Positions 1 to 6,970 of a stretch of 6,970 bases of DNA are shown piece by piece (the stretch's first letter is position 1; each line of letters begins with the position of its first letter). Origin of the DNA: an uncultured Acidimicrobiaceae bacterium. Its GTDB lineage: Bacteria; Actinomycetota; Acidimicrobiia; Acidimicrobiales; Microtrichaceae. The position numbers and the translations under genes were made by a program. Location of the stretch: the NCBI GenBank assembly GCA_937868025.1, contig CALMLJ010000366.1, forward strand, positions 1-6,970. The letters are read 5' to 3'. The notes below the pieces were generated by a model. It made no database searches. It was not told the DNA's origin and saw only the letters and a program-made list of their open reading frames with translations.

Positions 1-71
1 TCGTTCCGTCGAACTCGAGCGAAGCGTCCGCCGGCTGGGGTGCCGCCGGGATGGCGCCGGTTGGCGGTCAT
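1..71 (-). CDS. N-terminal fragment of a further gene with the shared motif
   Basis: Only the first 23 codons are inside the window. The ATG at 71-69 overlaps the TGA (70-68) of the preceding gene in an ATGA junction, as at the junction before it. The visible residues begin MTANRRHPGGTPAGGRFA and are clearly related to the start of the preceding 183-residue protein and, more loosely, to the start of the ArdC-like protein. The upstream Shine-Dalgarno is weak (GCGAG), so coupled reinitiation is likely. Nothing can be said about the body of the protein. Confidence 0.7.
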   Translation of the reverse strand, partial: MTANRRHPGGTPAGGRFARVRRN

Positions 72-85
72 GGCTGCTCGCTGGG
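26..85. repeat. Direct repeat copy 1 over a gene junction
   Basis: This copy spans the end of the acidic protein gene and the start of the partial gene. By eye it closely matches 571-633; the core ggttgg(c/t)ggtcatggctgctc differs at one base. The core encodes the end of one protein (Glu-Gln-Pro-stop) and the start of the next (Met-Thr-x-Asn-Arg). Boundaries are approximate. Family-level conservation of the motif or duplication of the junction could each explain it. Confidence 0.6.
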
Positions 86-619
86 GCCGTTCGGGTCCCA
101 CGCGAGCGCTTTGTCCAGGTCGAGGATCGATGGACCGTGTCGACGGATCACCTCGGGGTGCGATTCGCCGAGCCGGTCCCGCTCCTCCTCGGGCGCTTCG
201 AACTCTGTCCAGTAGTTCGGGCCGTCGCTGTCGGTCATCTGGCCGACGAAGTAGAAGAGCTCGTCGGTGCAGCCGGGCAGTTCGAGAGACCAGAGGTCCT
301 CCTCGTCGATGTCGTTCAGGTCGTCGTCGATCAGCGCGACCGGCACCATGTCGTCACCGCCCTGGTCGTTGGACTCGACGAGGAGGTATCGGGCGGTCGG
401 ATGGTGGTGACGGAGGATCGTCGCCGCGAGTTTCGCTCCGAGCAGTTCGGTTCGACGTCCGAGGCGGCTGAACTCGGTGACGCTCGTCCCGAAGTCGTCG
501 AGCAGTGCGGCGACGCGGTGGGTTGCGTCGTCGAGTTCGACGTTCGAGGCCTCGGGGTGGTCGACGGGAGCGAACTGGCCGCCGGTGGGGGTTCCGGGCG
601 GCCGTCGGTTGGTGGTCAT
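68..619 (-). CDS. Acidic hypothetical protein with shared N-terminal GTPxGGxFA motif
   Basis: A 183-residue protein I do not recognise. It starts at an ATG overlapping the previous gene's TGA (ATGA, 619-616) with GGAGAG five bases upstream, and ends in TGA overlapping the next ATG. Residues 1-19 (MTTNRRPPGTPTGGQFAPV) carry the motif also seen in both neighbours. Residues about 30-80 look helical then strand-forming (AKLAATILRHHHP, ARYLLVES). Residues 84-108 are dense in Asp/Glu (GGDDMV, LIDDDLNDIDEEDLW). By hand count there are 38 acidic and 14 Lys/Arg residues, so the protein is strongly negative. No transmembrane segment or signal peptide is seen and there is one Cys (107). Its place after an ArdC-like gene allows an antirestriction or DNA-mimic role, but charge alone does not prove it. 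The same open frame runs upstream to 1318, where it is only a shadow of the ArdC-like gene. Confidence 0.82.
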   Translation of the reverse strand: MTTNRRPPGTPTGGQFAPVDHPEASNVELDDATHRVAALLDDFGTSVTEFSRLGRRTELLGAKLAATILRHHHPTARYLLVESNDQGGDDMVPVALIDDDLNDIDEEDLWSLELPGCTDELFYFVGQMTDSDGPNYWTEFEAPEEERDRLGESHPEVIRRHGPSILDLDKALAWDPNGPSEQP

Positions 620-633
620 GGCTGCTCTCCGGT
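571..633. repeat. Direct repeat copy 2 over a gene junction
   Basis: This copy spans the end of the ArdC-like gene (ending GEQP-stop) and the start of the acidic protein gene (MTTNRR). It pairs with 26-85 in the same orientation, and both copies place the ATGA overlap at the same point. Outside the core, the similarity follows the codons of the GTPxGGxFA motif with several substitutions and a codon-length gap. Confidence 0.6.
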
Positions 634-2076
634 GTTCTCGTTGGCGGTTGCGGTCACGTAGCCGTCGAACGCGACGACAGCGCTGCGGAGCGGGCCGAGG
701 CCGGCGGACTTCATGTCGATGCCGGCGCTGCGGCGCCAACCTTCGATGTAGTGGGCACTGATCTCCGACGAGTCGATGCCGTGGTGGGCGAGGGCGAGGG
801 CGGCGAACGATTCGGCCGCCACCTCCTTCTCCGCGGACCGCTCCTCGGCCTGAGCGTCGGTCGAATGCCCGAGCAGTGCGTGGCCGAGCTCGTGGGCGAG
901 AGAATGGGCCCGGGCCCGGGCGTCGCCGCCACCGACCCCGGTCCACACATTGATCTTCGATTCCGAAGCCAACCAGTAGGCGATCGCTCCTCGGTCCTGG
1001 TGGTCGGTGTAGACCACCTTGATCCCCATATCGGCGGCGAGACGCTCCATCTGGGAGATCGCCGCGTCGGGATCGCCGAATCCGGTTGGGCGGGCTGCAG
1101 CGAGAGGCTCTTCGACGAGGGGGTACTCGTCGCCGTCCGTGCTCGACAGCGGGAACTCGAGGTGTGCACCGTGGAAGCCGCGTCGCGAACGTGCGCAGCG
1201 GAGCTCGTACTCCTCGTCGGTCTCGTCGGCCTTCTGCTTCGGCTTCGAGCCGGGCTTCCACCACACCACGGCAACACCTGGTTCCCCGTCGATTGGCGTC
1301 CGGCCCTTCTTCGCCCACGCGTTGATGTTGAGGTGCGGCTCCTTCAACCTCTTGAGAGCGAGAGCCATGGCGGCGTCGGAGTCGGCCTCGTCAGCGTCTT
1401 CGGTCTCGTCGAGGGCGTTCGCCCAGTGCTGGGCGAGCACGAGCATCTGGTTCGACGGTGAGAAGCGGGCGACACCGTCGGCATCTTGGCGGCGCCACTC
1501 GACGTACAGCTGCGCGATGGCAGTGGTGTCGGTCTCGAGCAGTCCGAGAAGGCGCCCCTGAGCCGCTGCGAGGCGCTCGTCGGTCTGTGCCCAGTGCTCG
1601 GCGGCAAGCGGATGGCACTCGCCGCGCCCCGCCTCAGCGAGCGCCTTGGAGATCGTGCGTCCAAGGCTCGTCTCGGTGCTCCCGCCGTGTTGGTGGCAGG
1701 TGGTCGCCGGGGAGCGGACAGCGTTTCGGCACCCGCGCACCTGGCCTTCGACTCGAGCGCCTCCGCGGTAGACGGGTACGAACCCGTAATCGCACTGGAC
1801 GATGTCACCGATGTCGACGGTGACGGTTCGGTCGAGGATCGGCCCGGATCGGGTCACGTGTTCGACGCCGGCGACGGGCCCCGACGGCTTGGTGCGCTTG
1901 GGGTCGCAGCGGCGGCACAGTCCGGAGCTGCGTTTGGTCGACGTGCCACAGGACGAGCAGGGGGTGCCGTCTGTGATCGCGACGTCGGATTCGCTTCGGC
2001 TTGTTGGGGCGAAGCGACCGCCGACGGACCCGGCGGCCCCGGCGCGATGTCGTGCGTTGGTGGCCATGGACCGCAT
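616..2076 (-). CDS. ArdC-like antirestriction protein with N-terminal zinc-binding clusters
   Basis: A 486-residue protein. After a short tag (residues 4-24) come two possible zinc sites: C40-x2-C43-x10-C54-x2-C57, and C116-x10-C127-x2-H130 followed by GG, with C95 a possible extra ligand. Residues about 200-325 resemble the ArdC ssDNA-binding domain: FSPSNQMLVLAQ (205-216), W254 with GRTPIDGEPGVAV (258-270), and FHGAHLEFPLSSTDGDEYP (301-319). Residues about 330-470 are a zincin: HELGH at 395-399, a Glu near 416-422 as probable third ligand, and a late HYIEGW (442-447). ArdC-type proteins bind ssDNA and protect incoming plasmid DNA from restriction. Compared with what I know of the family, an acidic segment of about 30 residues (219-249) is inserted in the ssDNA-binding domain. 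The gene starts 30 nt after the methylase-helicase. The ATG at 2076 is the first possible start, since an in-frame TAA lies at 2109-2107; the ATG at 2067 aligns better with the shared N-terminal motif. Its TGA overlaps the next ATG. Confidence 0.85.
   Translation of the reverse strand: MRSMATNARHRAGAAGSVGGRFAPTSRSESDVAITDGTPCSSCGTSTKRSSGLCRRCDPKRTKPSGPVAGVEHVTRSGPILDRTVTVDIGDIVQCDYGFVPVYRGGARVEGQVRGCRNAVRSPATTCHQHGGSTETSLGRTISKALAEAGRGECHPLAAEHWAQTDERLAAAQGRLLGLLETDTTAIAQLYVEWRRQDADGVARFSPSNQMLVLAQHWANALDETEDADEADSDAAMALALKRLKEPHLNINAWAKKGRTPIDGEPGVAVVWWKPGSKPKQKADETDEEYELRCARSRRGFHGAHLEFPLSSTDGDEYPLVEEPLAAARPTGFGDPDAAISQMERLAADMGIKVVYTDHQDRGAIAYWLASESKINVWTGVGGGDARARAHSLAHELGHALLGHSTDAQAEERSAEKEVAAESFAALALAHHGIDSSEISAHYIEGWRRSAGIDMKSAGLGPLRSAVVAFDGYVTATANENTGEQP
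625..630 (-). promoter_or_regulatory. Ribosome binding site of the acidic protein gene
   Basis: GGAGAG ends 5 nt before the ATG at 619, inside the last codons of the ArdC-like gene. Its position supports the 619 start over the much longer upstream open frame. Confidence 0.65.
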
Positions 2077-2106: not shown

Positions 2107-5100
2107 TTAGGCGACGAGCGCCTCGTCGCTCTGGTCGGCTGCCTCGGCGACCGACCTGTCGGTCGGGGATCCGACGGAGGCGACGCTGGCCTGACGCAGC
2201 TCCTCGTCGATCGCGACCAGTTCCGCTTCGAGGGCGGCGAGCTCGCCGTCGCCCGCCCACGCCGCTTCGGACTGCGCTGTGAGAGAGGCGATCTCGGCTT
2301 CGGTGGTGGCGATCTCCTCGTCGAGTTCGGCGATGCGTCCGGGGCGGATGTTCAGGAACGTCGCCCACAGGTGGTGAAGCGTCGGCGCCGCTTCGTCGCG
2401 GAGATCTCTGGCGCTGACCTCGAAGGTGAGGAGCGGGTCGTAGTTGAACGAGAACTCGGCGTCGATGCGGCGGGCGCCGCGGCGCCGCATCGTCAAGGTC
2501 ACGCGGGAGTTGACCATGACCTGGTGGTCTCGGCCGCCGAGCACCTCGATCGCCATCTCCTCGGCGTCGAACGGGGTCGAGCTGTAACGGCGAGCGAAGG
2601 CAGGGTTGGAGTTGAGTGCGCCGTCGATGTGTTCGAGGATCAGCAGCCCGTCACGGAGCCGCACGTTGTTGGACATCGCGACGCCGAGATCCTTGATCAT
2701 GGAGCGCCGGTGCCGGTTGGTGCGAATGTGGCCGGTGCGGCTGCGACGATGCTTGGCGATCAGGTTCTCGAGCTCGGCGCGTCGCAGCAGGGCTGGGTTG
2801 CCGGAGGCGACGGCCTTCACCTCGGCGAACGTGAACACTGCATCGCCGTCGACATCTTCGATGGCCCGAGCCTCGCTGCGGTACACCTGCTCGATGAAGC
2901 GGGCCTTGCGTTCGAGGGTTCCCCACATGAAGGCGTCGAAGGAACCGGTGACGACGTAGCGGTAGATCCGGACATGGTTCGGGTTCCCCTGCCGGACGCC
3001 GCGACCTTCGCGCTGGCGGATGTCGGAGGGCCGCCAGGGGGCGTCGAGGTGGTGAATGGCGGTCACCCGATCCTGAATGTTGGTGCCTTCGCCGAAGGTA
3101 CCGGTCGAGCCGATCACGACATCGACGTCGCCGTTGCGGCATGCGGCGAACAGGGACTCTTTCGCCTTGTCGGTCTTGGCGTCCTGCACGAACCGGATTC
3201 GGTCGGACTCGAATCCGCGTGCGACGAGCTGGGACCGCAGCTCGGCGTACATGTCGAATCGGGTGGAGCCGGGGGTGCCGAGGTCGCAGAACACGATCTG
3301 CAGGCCGTGGCGGTTGCGTGCGCACCGGTCGACGCATCGGCCGATCTTGCCGCCGTCGCTGGGAGCGTCGAGCCCGACGAGGCGGGGGTCGAGGGACGCG
3401 TGCCGGGCGTCGGTGGAGAGCTTCAAGAAGTTGTCTTCGTCGGACTTCACCATTCGGGCCCGGATCTGGTCGGCGCGCTCCATGAACTGCTCCATGGCTT
3501 CGGCGAGCTCGGGCGAGCAGTCGACCGTTTCGATGCTGCGCGTGCAGTCGGGCAACGCCAGGTCGAGATCCTCGTGGGTCTGGATGTCGGCGAAGCGGCT
3601 GAACATGAGGACCATCTCGGGGGCGTTCGAGAAGCGGGCGATGCGCGACTTCATCCGCCACCCGGTGCCTGACGGATCCATTTCGAGTCCAGTGACGACC
3701 TCGGCGAACGTGGCAAGCCAGGTGTCGAACTCGGCGAGCCCGGCCTCTTCGAGCGACGACGGGTCGACGTAGTGGTGCACGACCCACAGCTCGGCGAGCG
3801 TGTTGCTGATCGGGGTGCCGGTAGCGAACACGATGGCCCGGTTCGGGTCGTAGGTGGAGCGGATCCAGGCGAGCTTTGCGTCGAGATCCGACGCGGTCTT
3901 GGACGGGTTGCCGGTGGCGATGTCGGATCGCGTGTTGACCGCAAGGTTCTTGTACCGGTGAGCTTCGTCGACCCACAGAGCGTCAACCTGCAGGTCCTCG
4001 AAGGACACGGCGGTGTCGTCGCGCTGCTGGCCGAGCACGAGGCGTTCCAACTTCGCTTCGAGCGCGCGTTTGCGGCGTTCGATCGCCTTCACGACCGATC
4101 GCTGCTCGGTGTTCTCACCGATCGCCGCATCGAACCGTGCGATCTCGTCGCGGATGTAGTTGGCCATCGACTCGTCAGAGAGTCCGATCCGACCGAACGC
4201 GTTGTGCGTACACACGATCGCGTCCCAATCACCGATCGCGGCGGCCGCGACGAACTCGGCACGCTCGGATGCCGAGGTCTCATGGCGGCCCGCGGCGAGC
4301 ACGTTCGCCTTCGGGTACAGCGACATGAAGTCCGCGGTGAACTGCTCGAGCATGTGGTTCGGGACGACGATCATCGGCTTGTTGACCAGCCCGAGCCGAC
4401 GCGACTCCATCGCCGACATGATCAGCGACGCGGTCTTGCCGGCGCCCACGTCGTGTCCGATCAGGGTGTTCCCGGATGCGACGACACGCCACACGACATC
4501 GCGCTGATGATCGTGGGGCACGAACGCCGGGTTGAGGCCGGGGAACGTCTGGTGGGAGCCGTCGAAGTTGCGGCCGCGGTGGGATCGGAACCGGCGGTTG
4601 AACTCGGCGAGCAGGGTTTCGGTGCGGTCGGGGTCTTCCCACACCCACTCGCCGAACCGCTCCGCGATCTCGGCGGCCTTCTCGTTGACCGCTTCGGTCG
4701 CAGCGTTGTCGATCCGCTTCAACTCCGCCCCGTTGACGAAGATCGACTCCCACACGCGGAGCGCCGACATGTTGAGCATGCCCTGGACGATGTCGAACGT
4801 GTCCATCCAGGGGGTTCCCCAGGTGCCGGCCGTGAGCGACGTCGAGTAGTCCTTCCGAGGGCCGGGGACGACCTTCCACTGGCCGACCTCGGCTGCGTGT
4901 TCGACTTTGATGCCACCGCCGTAGCGGCCGGGGGAGACGAGCTCGTTGACGAATGCGGCGATGATCTCGGGAGCGATCCACGCTGCGCCGAGCCGGGCGG
5001 CAACCTCTTCGGGGGTCGCATCGGCGGGCACTACCTCGGCGAGAGCGGAGATGTTGGGCTCCGCGCCCGCTGCGACCGCTTGGGCGTGACGGGTGCGGAC

Positions 5101-6750
5101 GTCGCCGGACAGGTACTCGTCGGCCATCATCCAGCGGCCGGTGAGCGGGTCGGCGAACGCAAGACGCTTGTCCGTCAACTGCTCGTGAACCGAGTCGGCG
5201 GTCCAGCCGAGGAGTTCGGCGACCAGGTCGACATCGAGACCACCGGTGCGGTCGAGCGACACTGCAATCGCGCTCGCCAGGTCGGTGACGACGACCTCGG
5301 CCTCGGGCGCTGGTGCGGTCAGGCCGATCTCGAGGCTGGCGACAAGTGGCCAACCCGGGTCGACACGGAACCCGCCGAGCTTCGGGTAGCGGGGTGCGGT
5401 GGCTGTCCCGCCAACTCGTCGGAGGGAACCCCACCGCTTCGTGTAGGCGGCGTGCAGTTCGACGACGTTGTCGCGGCTGTCCCGGTCATCGAGCATCGTT
5501 CGGACGGCGTCGCGCAGTTCGATGAGGGCCGTCAGTTCAGCCGCCTCTCGGCCAGCGTCATGTCCGATCCACCCGTCGATTGCGGTGAACCGTTCGAAGC
5601 CGCTGCCTGCGATCCTGATGGTGCCCGGCAGAACCTTCGTGTCGGGAGTGGCGGCGGTCGGGTCGAACGACGCGAGCGGGGCTGTGTGGTCGAACGTGTG
5701 GGTGGCAGCGACGGCGTCGAAGACTCGTGCGACCGTCTTGGTCACTTCGCGTTGGACGTCGGCGCCACGTTCGAGGCGCCACGTCACCGAACCCGAGCCG
5801 TACATGCCGGATCCGACGGCCAGTTCGCCGACGACGCCGACGGTAGGGGAGCCGACATCGAACAACGTGTTCATCGTCGGGATGGTGTCATCGCGGTTAC
5901 GCATGTAGCGGGGGATCTCGAGGTCGTAGCGGCCGGCGAGCTTGGTGGATGCACGCCACGAGGCGTCGGCGAGGCGAGGGGAGCCATCGGTGTCGTCACG
6001 ACGGAAGATCAGGAGGTCGGCGACGACGTTGGTCCCCATGTCGGCGAACGTTCCTTCGGGGAAGCGGACGACACCGAGGAGCGAACCCCAGCGGGCGATT
6101 TCGTCGCGGGCTTTGGTGGTGCCGGCGTCGAGCGTGAAGCGTGACGTGACGACTGCGACGACGCCGCCGGGGCGGACGAGGCGGAGTGCCTTGGCGATGA
6201 AGTAGTTGTGAATCGCAAGGCCTGCCGGATTGTCGATCGGGTCGTAGGGGGTGTCCTTGCCGAATGGGACGTTGCCGATGACGAGGTCGAACGATCCGGC
6301 AGGCGCGGTGAACCTCTCGAATCGGCTGGTGACGATCGTGGCTTCGGGGTGTCGGAGCCGTGCCGCTTCGGCGGTGACTGGGTCGGCTTCGACGCCGACG
6401 AGCTCACCGACCGCGTCGTCGAAGAACAGTCCGGACCCGCAACCGGCTTCGAGGACCCGACCGCCAGTGAACCCGAGCGAACGACGGACGCCCGACCAGA
6501 TCGAGGCCGCCAGCCATGGGGGCGTGTAGAACGCGGTGGTTGTAGCCCGCTTCGCAGCCTCCAGCTGTTCCTCGTCGAGCGTCGCGATGATCTCGGAGCG
6601 GTGCGGCGAGTGGTTCTCGAGCATCTTCGCCGCCGGCCCCCACCCGCGCCACGCGGCGACCGCTTCCATCTCTTCCGCGGTGACGGGCTCTCCGTCGATG
6701 CTCCGGGCGATGGCGCGCAAGGCGGTGAGGTGGGACTGCGTGGCGTTCAT
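2107..6750 (-). CDS. Large N6-adenine DNA methylase-SNF2/DEAH helicase fusion (DarB-like)
   Basis: A 1547-residue protein. Residues about 70-250 form a Rossmann methyltransferase: YTPP at 75-78, SAM-binding VLEAGCGSGLFF at 99-110, and motif IV GNVPFG at 159-164, an N-[VIP]-P-F variant of the NPPY/F catalytic motif. About residues 510-560 include DEYLSGDVR (544-552), a stretch I associate with DarB-type phage/plasmid methylase-helicases. The helicase covers about 740-1300: HDHQRDVVWRV (746-756), Walker A GHDVGAGKT (765-773), DEAH (928-931), FATGTPISNTLAELW (975-989), motif V near GSTGTFGEGTNIQDR (1214-1228) and motif VI QREGRGVRQGN (1246-1256). Residues about 1472-1521 are rich in Glu/Ala/Leu and probably coiled coil. 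No restriction nuclease motif was recognised. The frame stays open to 6873, but the ATG at 6750 is preferred because it lies 5 nt after the macro-domain stop and begins a sensible protein; the upstream extension is Arg-rich and overlaps that gene. No good Shine-Dalgarno is visible, so coupled translation is likely. It probably modifies or remodels element DNA against host restriction; a defence role is an alternative. Confidence 0.9.
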   Translation of the reverse strand: MNATQSHLTALRAIARSIDGEPVTAEEMEAVAAWRGWGPAAKMLENHSPHRSEIIATLDEEQLEAAKRATTTAFYTPPWLAASIWSGVRRSLGFTGGRVLEAGCGSGLFFDDAVGELVGVEADPVTAEAARLRHPEATIVTSRFERFTAPAGSFDLVIGNVPFGKDTPYDPIDNPAGLAIHNYFIAKALRLVRPGGVVAVVTSRFTLDAGTTKARDEIARWGSLLGVVRFPEGTFADMGTNVVADLLIFRRDDTDGSPRLADASWRASTKLAGRYDLEIPRYMRNRDDTIPTMNTLFDVGSPTVGVVGELAVGSGMYGSGSVTWRLERGADVQREVTKTVARVFDAVAATHTFDHTAPLASFDPTAATPDTKVLPGTIRIAGSGFERFTAIDGWIGHDAGREAAELTALIELRDAVRTMLDDRDSRDNVVELHAAYTKRWGSLRRVGGTATAPRYPKLGGFRVDPGWPLVASLEIGLTAPAPEAEVVVTDLASAIAVSLDRTGGLDVDLVAELLGWTADSVHEQLTDKRLAFADPLTGRWMMADEYLSGDVRTRHAQAVAAGAEPNISALAEVVPADATPEEVAARLGAAWIAPEIIAAFVNELVSPGRYGGGIKVEHAAEVGQWKVVPGPRKDYSTSLTAGTWGTPWMDTFDIVQGMLNMSALRVWESIFVNGAELKRIDNAATEAVNEKAAEIAERFGEWVWEDPDRTETLLAEFNRRFRSHRGRNFDGSHQTFPGLNPAFVPHDHQRDVVWRVVASGNTLIGHDVGAGKTASLIMSAMESRRLGLVNKPMIVVPNHMLEQFTADFMSLYPKANVLAAGRHETSASERAEFVAAAAIGDWDAIVCTHNAFGRIGLSDESMANYIRDEIARFDAAIGENTEQRSVVKAIERRKRALEAKLERLVLGQQRDDTAVSFEDLQVDALWVDEAHRYKNLAVNTRSDIATGNPSKTASDLDAKLAWIRSTYDPNRAIVFATGTPISNTLAELWVVHHYVDPSSLEEAGLAEFDTWLATFAEVVTGLEMDPSGTGWRMKSRIARFSNAPEMVLMFSRFADIQTHEDLDLALPDCTRSIETVDCSPELAEAMEQFMERADQIRARMVKSDEDNFLKLSTDARHASLDPRLVGLDAPSDGGKIGRCVDRCARNRHGLQIVFCDLGTPGSTRFDMYAELRSQLVARGFESDRIRFVQDAKTDKAKESLFAACRNGDVDVVIGSTGTFGEGTNIQDRVTAIHHLDAPWRPSDIRQREGRGVRQGNPNHVRIYRYVVTGSFDAFMWGTLERKARFIEQVYRSEARAIEDVDGDAVFTFAEVKAVASGNPALLRRAELENLIAKHRRSRTGHIRTNRHRRSMIKDLGVAMSNNVRLRDGLLILEHIDGALNSNPAFARRYSSTPFDAEEMAIEVLGGRDHQVMVNSRVTLTMRRRGARRIDAEFSFNYDPLLTFEVSARDLRDEAAPTLHHLWATFLNIRPGRIAELDEEIATTEAEIASLTAQSEAAWAGDGELAALEAELVAIDEELRQASVASVGSPTDRSVAEAADQSDEALVA

Positions 6751-6755
6751 GGGTT

Positions 6756-6970
6756 CTATGTGGGCGGGCCGTGAGCGGTCCCCACCGGTGCGGCGATGAC
6801 GTAGTCGACGCATGCGAATGCGTCGTCGACGACTGGGCCGACGTCGGCCCAGTCGAGCCCTCCGAGCCCGCACCCGAGCTTCGGCACGACGAGGCTGACG
6901 TTGCGCCTGAACGCGTAGGCGGCGACTGCGTGGCAGCTCGATGCGACAAGGTCGAGGCTCGAAGGGTCGG
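6756..6970 (-). CDS. Macro-domain (ADP-ribose-binding/hydrolase-like) protein, C-terminal part
   Basis: This is the last 70 codons of a gene that begins beyond the window's right edge; it ends in TAG at 6758-6756. The visible part reads VSLVVPKLGCGLGGLDWADV followed by a predicted helix (GPVVDDAFACVD) and a final strand (YVIAAPVG). The P-K-x-G-C-G-L-G-G-L-D-W stretch matches the phosphate-binding loop of macro domains of the ALC1/TARG1-like group, where the loop is followed by a W-x-x-V helix. Family members bind ADP-ribose, and several remove ADP-ribose from proteins or nucleic acids. The N-terminal half with the other ligand-binding loop is missing, so activity cannot be judged. The protein ends soon after the fold, which suggests a small stand-alone domain. 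The next gene starts 5 nt after the stop. In a mobile element it could reverse host ADP-ribosylation or act as an antitoxin; both are inference. Confidence 0.72.
   Translation of the reverse strand, partial: DPSSLDLVASSCHAVAAYAFRRNVSLVVPKLGCGLGGLDWADVGPVVDDAFACVDYVIAAPVGTAHGPPT
6806..6825. repeat. 8-bp stem with 4-nt loop next to the palindrome
   Basis: The arms cgacgcat and atgcgtcg enclose gcga. The element lies 4 nt from the 26-bp palindrome, within the last 23 codons of the macro-domain gene. On the transcribed strand the two would form consecutive hairpins about 55-105 nt before the methylase-helicase start. No T-run follows, so it does not look like a standard intrinsic terminator. Confidence 0.6.
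6830..6855. repeat. 26-bp perfect palindrome inside the macro-domain gene
   Basis: The arm CGACTGGGCCGAC is followed directly by its exact reverse complement, with no spacer; the next base pair outward does not match. It lies in the codons for the L-D-W-A-D-V-G-P-V-V segment after the macro-domain phosphate loop, about 80 nt upstream of the methylase-helicase start. It could be a protein-binding site or an mRNA hairpin, or a by-product of codon choice. Confidence 0.8.

What the first reader, a model, noticed from the sequence alone, without database searches (positions are those of the whole stretch)
1..2067. Common N-terminal tag on three consecutive, otherwise unrelated proteins
Three adjacent genes start with the same short pattern: MATNARHRAGAAGSVGGRFA (ArdC-like, from the second Met), MTTNRRPPGTPTGGQFAPV (acidic protein) and MTANRRHPGGTPAGGRFA (partial gene). 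Shared positions are Met, Asn-4, Arg-6, Gly, then GG-x-F-A. After the tag the two readable proteins show no similarity. A short basic, Gly/Pro-rich N-terminal tag on unrelated cargo suggests a sorting signal, for example recognition by a conjugative secretion channel, a partner protein or a processing protease. ArdC of plasmid pSa is reported to travel with transferred DNA, which makes a translocation signal a reasonable hypothesis. From memory I associate similar GTPxGGQFA starts with actinobacterial mobile-element proteins, but I cannot verify that here.
Basis: partly seen in the sequence, partly recalled or inferred. Interest (0 to 1): 0.8.

Follow-up and report, generated by a model that had tools for sequence, protein, structure and literature searches.

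The report
Shared address tag on plasmid proteins
Dozens of otherwise unrelated proteins on large plasmids and related elements of soil actinobacteria start with the same short floppy tag, which is probably an address for delivery through the element's own transfer machine and was not found described in the searches made.

Summary
A profile built from 127 tags outside the window hits three of its 127 six-frame segments, the three named genes (E 2e-12, 7e-7, 8e-6). The tag is about 30 residues (consensus R-x-P-x-G-[IVT]-P-x-GG-[QR]-[FYW]-A-x3-H-x-E-x4-L) and predicted disordered. Large actinobacterial elements carry many: pACHL01 49, an Arthrobacter plasmid 41 (35 at E<=1e-3), pYJN5-1 37, genome G418 36. 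129 tagged proteins form 69 cargo families, all tagged by residue 25; other plasmids use dialects. Cargo is soluble (0 of 151 with a membrane-like segment, 489 of 1943 untagged), acidic, and includes ArdC, DNA ligase, CCA-adding enzyme and Fic. Tag and a TraG/VirD4-like ATPase co-occur (11 and 7 of 297 genomes, both in 6, p=4e-9), with exceptions. Best reading: a substrate signal of the element's transfer system, delivering establishment and counter-defence proteins. That sorting step is inferred, not shown; cell-internal docking is the main rival.

The parts
1972..2067 (-). Tag on the ArdC-like protein (residues 1-32, MATNARHRAGAAGSVGGRFAPTSRSESDVAIT)
   Evidence: Independent tag profile E 7.2e-7; present in 16 of 19 family members; alignment; pLDDT about 30
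616..2067 (-). ArdC-like protein, 483 aa: tag, Cys-rich stretch (zinc-ribbon-like, by eye), body with HExGH peptidase motif
   Evidence: Pfam M78 weak, below cut-off; relatives; Foldseek best hits are ArdC of R388, 6i89 E 3.8e-7 and 6sna 9.4e-7, TM-scores low
530..619 (-). Tag on the acidic protein (residues 1-30, MTTNRRPPGTPTGGQFAPVDHPEASNVELD)
   Evidence: Independent tag profile E 2.1e-12
68..619 (-). Acidic protein, 183 aa, no family; net charge -22 over the 148 residues after residue 35
   Evidence: No Pfam family at E 0.1; one relative at 97% identity, P0021; charge
1..71 (-). Start of a third tagged gene (23 residues, MTANRRHPGGTPAGGRFARVRRN), cut by the window end; residues 1-18 match the tag
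   Evidence: independent tag profile E 7.6e-6
2107..6750 (-). Upstream gene in the same direction, 1547 aa: methyltransferase plus SNF2-type helicase (DarB-like architecture, a recalled name, not tested); no tag hit
   Evidence: SNF2-rel_dom 1.3e-9, Helicase_C 4.3e-7, Methyltransf_11 2.7e-5; no tag segment
6756..6968 (-). Partial gene, possibly a macro domain; its start lies outside the window
   Evidence: Macro E 0.037, below the curated cut-off

Best explanation
The stretch encodes two complete members and one partial member of a large set of proteins that carry a common, modular, disordered terminal tag. Shown: the tag is a real sequence on many unrelated soluble proteins; it is N-terminal as a rule and C-terminal in one family; its codons vary, so the peptide is what is kept; it is concentrated on large actinobacterial plasmids and related elements; and it co-occurs with a TraG/VirD4-like ATPase. 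Inferred: the tag is the substrate signal read by that ATPase (or by the FtsK/SpoIIIE ATPase coded near it), so that tagged proteins are handed to the element's transfer channel and reach the recipient with or around the DNA. There they would protect and establish the incoming element: ArdC-like antirestriction, NAD-dependent DNA ligase, CCA-adding tRNA repair enzyme, ParB-like, Fic and acidic small proteins. The dialects in other plasmid lineages would then reflect co-evolution of tag and reader.
For: Numbers: 49, 41 and 37 matches at E<=0.01 on three named plasmids (35 of the 41 at E<=1e-3). Unrelated cargo: 69 families among 129; 109 of 113 database candidates match the first 40 residues of one tagged protein at E<=0.1 and form 20 cargo clusters. 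Position: 129 of 129 start by residue 25, none internal at E<1e-3 in 1500 predicted proteins; C-terminal in one orthologous family of three elements. Solubility: 0 of 151 tagged with a membrane-like segment, 489 of 1943 untagged; bodies more acidic than untagged soluble proteins. Runs: 19 adjacent same-strand tagged pairs in pACHL01, 3.0 on shuffling. Reader: tag in 11 and TraG-like ATPase in 7 of 297 genomes, both in 6 (Fisher 3.5e-9); 16, 11 and 7 of 197 (1.6e-6); same contig in 5 of 6 and 5 of 7. Element: VirB4-type AAA_10 1.1e-11, weak TrbL/VirB6 0.0014, CHAP hydrolase. In pS16 a run of dialect tags lies between the TraG-like ATPase and FtsK genes. Cargo: ArdC, LigA, CCA-adding enzyme, Fic, AbiEii, LPD29, DUF2958. 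Precedent: ArdC and TraC1 cross with DNA (PMC5512222, passages); an F-type plasmid sends ParA, ParB, SSB and Psi proteins (PMC8406263, start of abstract).
Against: No transfer, binding or secretion was measured. PLSDB types the plasmids viewed as non-mobilizable; no relaxase turned up, though no dedicated search was made. G338 (16 tags), G340 and G467 (2 each) have no ATPase hit; G338 is a fragmented assembly. G425, G466, G479 and G824 have the ATPase but no tag in the 60, 54, 93 and 41 genes sampled; of five such genomes only G457 showed dialect tags, 3 of 72 genes. The Glaciihabitans plasmid has 9 dialect tags, the TraG-like ATPase and FtsK, but no relative of the VirB4- or VirB6-like proteins at E 1e-4. 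SSB, DnaE and ParA-like proteins are untagged, although SSB and ParA are sent by an F-type plasmid. Closeness of tags to the ATPase-FtsK module is weak once clustering is kept: rotation P 0.20, 0.007, 0.17, 0.41. Only two core genes (this ATPase and FtsK) were put to the co-occurrence test, so the ATPase is not singled out. Known T4SS signals are mostly C-terminal (recalled).
Confidence: 0.5

Rival explanations
1. The tag is a docking motif used inside the plasmid-bearing cell: it gathers plasmid proteins at one partner, for example the plasmid's replication site, a chaperone or Clp_N-domain adaptor, or RNA polymerase, without any export.
For: Tagged proteins are soluble and the tag is a disordered short linear motif. 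pACHL01 codes four Clp_N-domain proteins close to the TraG-like ATPase gene. G338, G340 and G467 have two or more tags but no ATPase hit. SSB and DnaE are untagged.
Against: The named cargo (ligase, tRNA repair, ArdC, Fic, AbiEii) has no obvious common site in the cell; its common theme is an incoming element (inference). The co-occurrence with a secretion-type ATPase is strong, though other core genes but FtsK were not tested.
Confidence: 0.28
2. The tag packages proteins into a phage-like particle and is a capsid targeting sequence, as for T4 internal proteins or P1 DarA/DarB (recalled).
For: A methyltransferase-helicase and an ArdC-like neighbour in the window recall P1 and polyvalent proteins. 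Three IMG/VR stretches look like phage proteins with GxPxGGQFA, L032 near a start. pACHL01 carries phage-type replication genes and three endolysin-family matches.
Against: No head or packaging family is among the 25 PHROG families shown, of 107, for 106 large untagged pACHL01 proteins (the rest were not seen). The elements carry T4SS-type genes. A strict tag pattern gave 0 hits in viral contigs.
Confidence: 0.06
3. The conserved start is a DNA or RNA feature (recombination site, translation or attenuation signal) that happens to be translated.
For: Glycine, alanine and arginine codons of the motif are less varied than background at several positions in pACHL01 and G418; genes come in runs.
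Against: All four glycine codons and several arginine codons occur, and in the zg-Y1110 plasmid 6 of 7 positions are as varied as background. The distance from Met to the motif varies from 1 to about 20 residues, and the motif also sits at a C-terminus. Dialects change many residues but keep the order of R, G, an aromatic residue and the closing L.
Confidence: 0.07
4. The tag is a pro-peptide or degron cut or read by a protease, or a type VII signal read by the FtsK/EccC-like ATPase.
For: Two glycines in front of Q-[FYW]-A could be a processing site (inference). The FtsK protein finds EssC and EccCa in tblastn at about 27% identity over 16-17% of its length.
Against: FtsK and tag co-occur only weakly (6 and 16 of 197 genomes, both in 2, p 0.077). 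The GG pair is often lost in the dialects. No WxG100 partner was looked for.
Confidence: 0.08

Closest known systems
ArdC of R388/pSa (antirestriction protein that travels with DNA)
   Same: The window's 483-aa protein has ArdC of R388 as its best fold matches (6i89, 6sna). Tagged ArdC-type bodies also occur in G002 (ArdcN 1.7e-13) and, with a dialect tag, in pS16 (219373-220659, M78 3.5e-6, ArdcN below cut-off).
   Different: The tag and the Cys-rich stretch are extra; the Pseudonocardia relative P0020 starts without the tag. R388 ArdC is not known to need such a tag (recalled).
Type IV secretion translocation signals (relaxase TS domains, C-terminal effector signals)
   Same: Signals shared by otherwise unrelated substrates and read by a VirD4-type ATPase (recalled; PMC3912908 and PMC8406263, starts of abstracts).
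   Different: Here N-terminal as a rule, about 30 residues, a sharp consensus, about 35-49 carriers on one plasmid, in Gram-positive actinobacteria. Delivery is not shown.
T4 capsid targeting sequence / P1 Dar proteins (recalled)
   Same: A common N-terminal tag on unrelated internal proteins, some of which protect incoming DNA.
   Different: No capsid genes seen in the part of the PHROG result that was shown.
Polyvalent proteins (Iyer et al. 2017, PMC5512222)
   Same: Same cargo themes: ArdC-N, metallopeptidase, SNF2 and methyltransferase, LPD domains, on conjugative elements (passages).
   Different: There many domains are fused in one large chain, with ArdC-N proposed as a 'header'; here many separate proteins share a 30-residue header. 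The passages shown do not mention such a tag; the paper was not read in full.

Membership tests
Modular terminal peptide tag (short linear motif) | Same motif on non-homologous proteins | tested here: met
   69 single-linkage cargo families among 129 tagged proteins, E<1e-4
Modular terminal peptide tag (short linear motif) | Terminal position, disordered, no known domain | tested here: met
   129 of 129 by residue 25; pLDDT about 30 in the one model made; no Pfam/PHROG/NCBIfam family in more than 4 of 122
Type IV secretion substrate signal | Element carries a coupling ATPase and a VirB4-type motor | tested here: met
   TraG-D_C 0.0013, below cut-off, plus RefSeq name; AAA_10 1.1e-11; but no VirB4 relative on the Glaciihabitans plasmid
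Type IV secretion substrate signal | Signal and receptor co-occur across genomes | tested here: met
   Fisher 3.5e-9 (297 genomes) and 1.6e-6 (197 genomes); exceptions
Type IV secretion substrate signal | Tag binds the coupling ATPase or moves a reporter into recipients | not testable with these tools
   needs bench work
Type IV secretion substrate signal | Relaxase (obligate substrate) bears the signal | tested here: inconclusive
   no relaxase recognised in the scans made, no dedicated search; MOB-suite says non-mobilizable
ArdC antirestriction protein (window 616-2067) | ArdC fold with metallopeptidase half | tested here: met
   6i89 E 3.8e-7, 6sna 9.4e-7, the only matches at E<=0.001, with low TM-scores; H-E-x-G-H invariant in A1
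ArdC antirestriction protein (window 616-2067) | Protects DNA from restriction | not testable with these tools
   not assayed
Type VII secretion substrate | WxG100-type helical hairpin and YxxxD/E signal (recalled) | not tested
   no search for WxG100 partners was made; the tag is predicted unfolded
Phage capsid targeting sequence | Carrier codes head and packaging genes | tested here: inconclusive
   none among the 25 of 107 PHROG families shown

The most novel reading that the evidence does not exclude
A family of actinobacterial megaplasmids and related elements owns a protein-delivery code: a terminal address of about 30 residues, spoken in plasmid-specific dialects, that sends nearly a tenth of the element's gene products (some 35-50 proteins) through its own conjugation-type machine into the recipient, as a complete establishment and counter-defence kit.
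Probability: 0.42. Interest if true: 0.95.

Novelty: new variant of a known kind. Interest (0 to 1): 0.85.

Why it matters
If right, one short sequence predicts which of the many 'hypothetical proteins' on actinobacterial megaplasmids are delivered to recipients, and hands over dozens of candidate counter-defence proteins at once. It also makes an open question testable: what marks protein substrates of Gram-positive conjugation systems. Even if the partner is cell-internal, a plasmid-wide sorting tag on about 8.5% of genes (46 of 540 called in pACHL01) would be a new level of plasmid organisation.

Tried and rejected
Led nowhere: tblastn of the window's ArdC-like protein in plasmids and phages, no match; tblastn of a 30-residue tag, no match (the query is short). 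A strict tag pattern in viral contigs gave 0; a looser one 7 stretches, of which L032, L033 and L038 look, by eye, like phage proteins with GxPxGGQFA but without the H-x-E part. Locus searches with the ArdC-like protein gave none or only distant relatives, though they opened genomes G001-G009. PDB sequence searches with the VirB4- and TraG-like proteins gave no match. Rejected: one family spread by duplication; an even chromosomal feature; FtsK as the sole reader; a DNA-level site. Decoys: a hand-reversed tag alignment of 20 rows (the real one has 27), 0 of 149 genomes; reversed N-termini, 0 hits at E<0.1.

Limits: genes were called by a simple script of mine. It gives 46 tags in pACHL01 where genome search gives 49; RefSeq starts one of the missed ones at its tag (358365). 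Large samples scored only 27-54 tag candidates per genome, so counts such as 27 in G879 are lower bounds. Six of the 41 matches on the zg-Y1110 plasmid have E between 0.002 and 0.01. In one search the pS16 row uses 26 dialect tags that I listed by hand of about 42; the rest count as untagged there, and membrane segments were judged by a hydropathy rule. The dialect profile was seeded with tags from pS16, the Glaciihabitans plasmid and others, so its hits there are partly by construction; the reversed control is not affected. In one search tags were taken at E<0.01 (190 in all). The order and family samples share some genomes, and G004 and G418 helped to build the tag or ATPase profile; without them p is 8e-8 (order, without G004) and 1e-4 (family, without both). 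Literature: 'GGQFA' gives 2 unrelated papers, 'pACHL01' 2, and the listings and the passages show nothing on the tag; only open-licence PMC papers are held.
Full report
What is in the window. On the minus strand the window reads: a partial gene with a weak macro-domain match (6756-6968), a 1547-aa methyltransferase plus SNF2-helicase protein (2107-6750), a 483-aa ArdC-like protein (616-2067), a 183-aa acidic protein (68-619) and the first 23 residues of a further gene (1-71). The last three genes overlap by ATGA. Only these three hit the tag profile.

Is the tag real. The protein database holds 20 matches to the ArdC-like protein: 19 along most of its length (one 99% identical), nearly all without a named organism, and one distant Pseudonocardia protein. 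16 of 19 score with the independent profile; P0016 lacks its N-terminus, P0018 and P0019 differ. The predicted structure (mean pLDDT 75, pTM 0.45) leaves residues 1-33 unfolded (pLDDT about 30); the rest has ArdC of plasmid R388 as its best fold match (6i89, E 3.8e-7, TM-scores low).

How far it spreads. With the 17-row tag alignment A2, nine genomes were searched; two actinomycete bins had many strong matches, in G002 seven in a row on contig C41. With the 27-row A3 at E<=0.001: 4 of 296 genomes of the phylum sample, 16 of 197 of the family sample, 11 of 297 of the order sample, and 3 of 148 in each of two order searches around G001 and G002, which include those genomes. A reversed decoy alignment gave 0 of 149. 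Counts are very uneven: G418 36, G879 at least 27, G338 16, G002 12, G650 12, G804 9, G001 9, the others 1-4. In G418 all 36 matches lie on two contigs of 195 and 192 kb; a protein on a 191,881-bp contig is named Paeniglutamicibacter antarcticus, so G418 is probably that species. Among six plasmid records chosen through an FtsK relative, pACHL01 of P. chlorophenolicus A6 has 49 matches at E<=0.01, the Arthrobacter sp. zg-Y1110 plasmid 41 (35 at E<=1e-3), pYJN5-1 37, Curtobacterium pS16 7, and a Glaciihabitans and a Bifidobacterium plasmid 0 with A3. A dialect profile from 20 seeds, many of them from these same plasmids, then found 33 tags at E<0.01 in pS16 and 9 in the Glaciihabitans plasmid (42 and 9 in union with A3), for example MTFNEHDHPRGTAGKFTEKQQSADEVTL, against 0 in reversed N-termini. 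The common core, read by eye, is R, then G-x-[FYW], then [HRQ]-x-[EDA] and a closing L.

One tag, many proteins. In 1500 predicted proteins of eight sequence sets, 129 are tagged at E<1e-3, all by residue 25, none inside. After the tag they fall into 69 families (E<1e-4); within single elements 46 make 42, 35 make 33, 34 make 26 and 12 make 12. A database search with the first 40 residues of one tagged pACHL01 protein returned 109 of 113 candidates at E<=0.1, in 20 cargo clusters. Tagged genes sit side by side: 19 same-strand neighbour pairs in pACHL01 (3.0 on shuffling), 10 in C45 (1.4), 11 in the zg-Y1110 part (1.6), 6 in the G002 C41 stretch (1.0); in G002 C14 none (0.5). In one orthologous family of three elements the same motif stands at the very C-terminus (...NRGSFASYQHAEPTFRL; the profiles find these only weakly). 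Codons of the conserved residues vary; several glycine, alanine and arginine positions are less varied than background in pACHL01 and G418, hardly any in the zg-Y1110 plasmid.

What the cargo is. Of 122 tagged proteins scanned (those of the 129 that lie within one tile), Pfam names few: DUF7007 (4), DUF2958 (4), NAD-dependent DNA ligase (2), Fic (2), LPD29 (2), and one each of ArdcN, M78 peptidase, AbiEii, poly-A polymerase head (CCA-adding enzyme in NCBIfam), ParBc_2, sigma-70 region 2 and others. PADLOC adds SoFic and candidate (PDC) models. One pS16 protein with a dialect tag matches M78 above the cut-off and ArdcN below it; a second, named ArdC family in RefSeq, matches ArdcN below the cut-off and has a tag-like start by eye. 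By a hydropathy rule 0 of 151 tagged proteins have a membrane-like segment, 489 of 1943 untagged do. Their bodies are more acidic than those of untagged soluble proteins: medians -5.9 against -2.9, -7.8 against -3.4 and -5.7 against -2.3 charges per 100 residues. The window's acidic protein has -22 over 148 residues.

What they travel with. These plasmids code a VirB4-type ATPase (AAA_10), a weak TrbL/VirB6-like protein, a CHAP hydrolase, a TraG/VirD4-like ATPase, two FtsK-type proteins and a pilus-type ATPase (T2SSE), as well as DnaE and ribonucleotide reductase. None of these was called as tagged. In the order sample 11 of 297 genomes have tags and 7 the TraG-like ATPase; 6 have both (Fisher 3.5e-9; 8e-8 without G004). 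In the family sample it is 16, 11 and 7 of 197 (1.6e-6; 1e-4 without G004 and G418). In 5 of 6 and 5 of 7 of the double-positive genomes (G004 is in both) they share a contig. FtsK does less well (16, 6 and 2 of 197, p 0.077). Of five ATPase-positive genomes without an A3 tag, G457 has three dialect tags in the sampled pieces; G425, G466, G479 and G824 show none. G338, G340 and G467 have two or more tags and no ATPase hit. In four circular plasmids and contig C45, tags lie nearer the ATPase-FtsK module than expected gene by gene (four of five with p<0.002), but when their clustering is kept the effect in the four circular ones is weak (rotation P 0.20, 0.007, 0.17, 0.41).

Mechanism. The facts fit a sorting signal: modular, terminal, unfolded, on soluble proteins, not seen on the machine itself, tied to one kind of element. 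The named cargo is what an incoming element would want early: antirestriction, DNA sealing, tRNA repair, modifying enzymes. ArdC and TraC1 are known to cross with DNA (PMC5512222, passages); an F-type plasmid sends ParA, ParB, SSB and Psi proteins (PMC8406263, start of abstract). So the likeliest reading is a substrate signal for the element's transfer system, with the TraG/VirD4-like ATPase the first candidate reader. That step is inferred. A cell-internal docking partner remains a serious rival.

Known or new. No Pfam, PHROG or NCBIfam family covers the tag on these proteins, and the literature searches named under Tried and rejected found no report. As a kind, secretion and packaging signals are known; an N-terminal code of about 30 residues with dialects, on about 35-49 proteins of one plasmid, is not known to me.

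Noticed in passing
L163:4424-5272 (-) in pACHL01, and relatives at G418 C56 102481-103335 (+) and zg-Y1110 plasmid 31958-32830 (-): One orthologous protein family carries the tag motif at its extreme C-terminus instead of its N-terminus.
   Followed up: partly
G418 C45 69882-73769 (-): The VirB4-type ATPase is 1295 aa and matches the 833-aa pACHL01 relative in two pieces of 478 and 375 residues, as if an intein or other insert sat in the middle.
   Followed up: no
L032 3039-3065, L038 6373-6399, L033 6135-6161 (IMG/VR contigs): Phage-like proteins carry PRxPKGTPxGGQFA or GIPRGGQFA without the later H-x-E part; possibly a related motif (by eye).
   Followed up: no
pACHL01 242527-245951 (L153 8923-12347): Four Clp N-terminal-domain proteins stand close to the TraG-like ATPase gene; a possible chaperone or adaptor for tagged proteins.
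   Followed up: no
L158 30652-31297 (Bifidobacterium longum plasmid, NZ_CP146883): A plasmid with an FtsK relative codes SecE and SecG (RefSeq names); pACHL01 has proteins that look like SecY and SecG by eye (11532-12836, 11238-11486, not tested).
   Followed up: no
G466 C1 4447730-4451767: The TraG-like ATPase matches in two parts (1-409 and 403-820) with about 1.6 kb between them in one open frame of 1404 aa, again like an intein.
   Followed up: no
L207 (G474 C1 around 1213503) and L209 (G467 C1 around 1772947): Single tagged genes on chromosome-sized contigs lie among transposase- and recombinase-like genes, probably remnants of such elements (by eye).
   Followed up: partly
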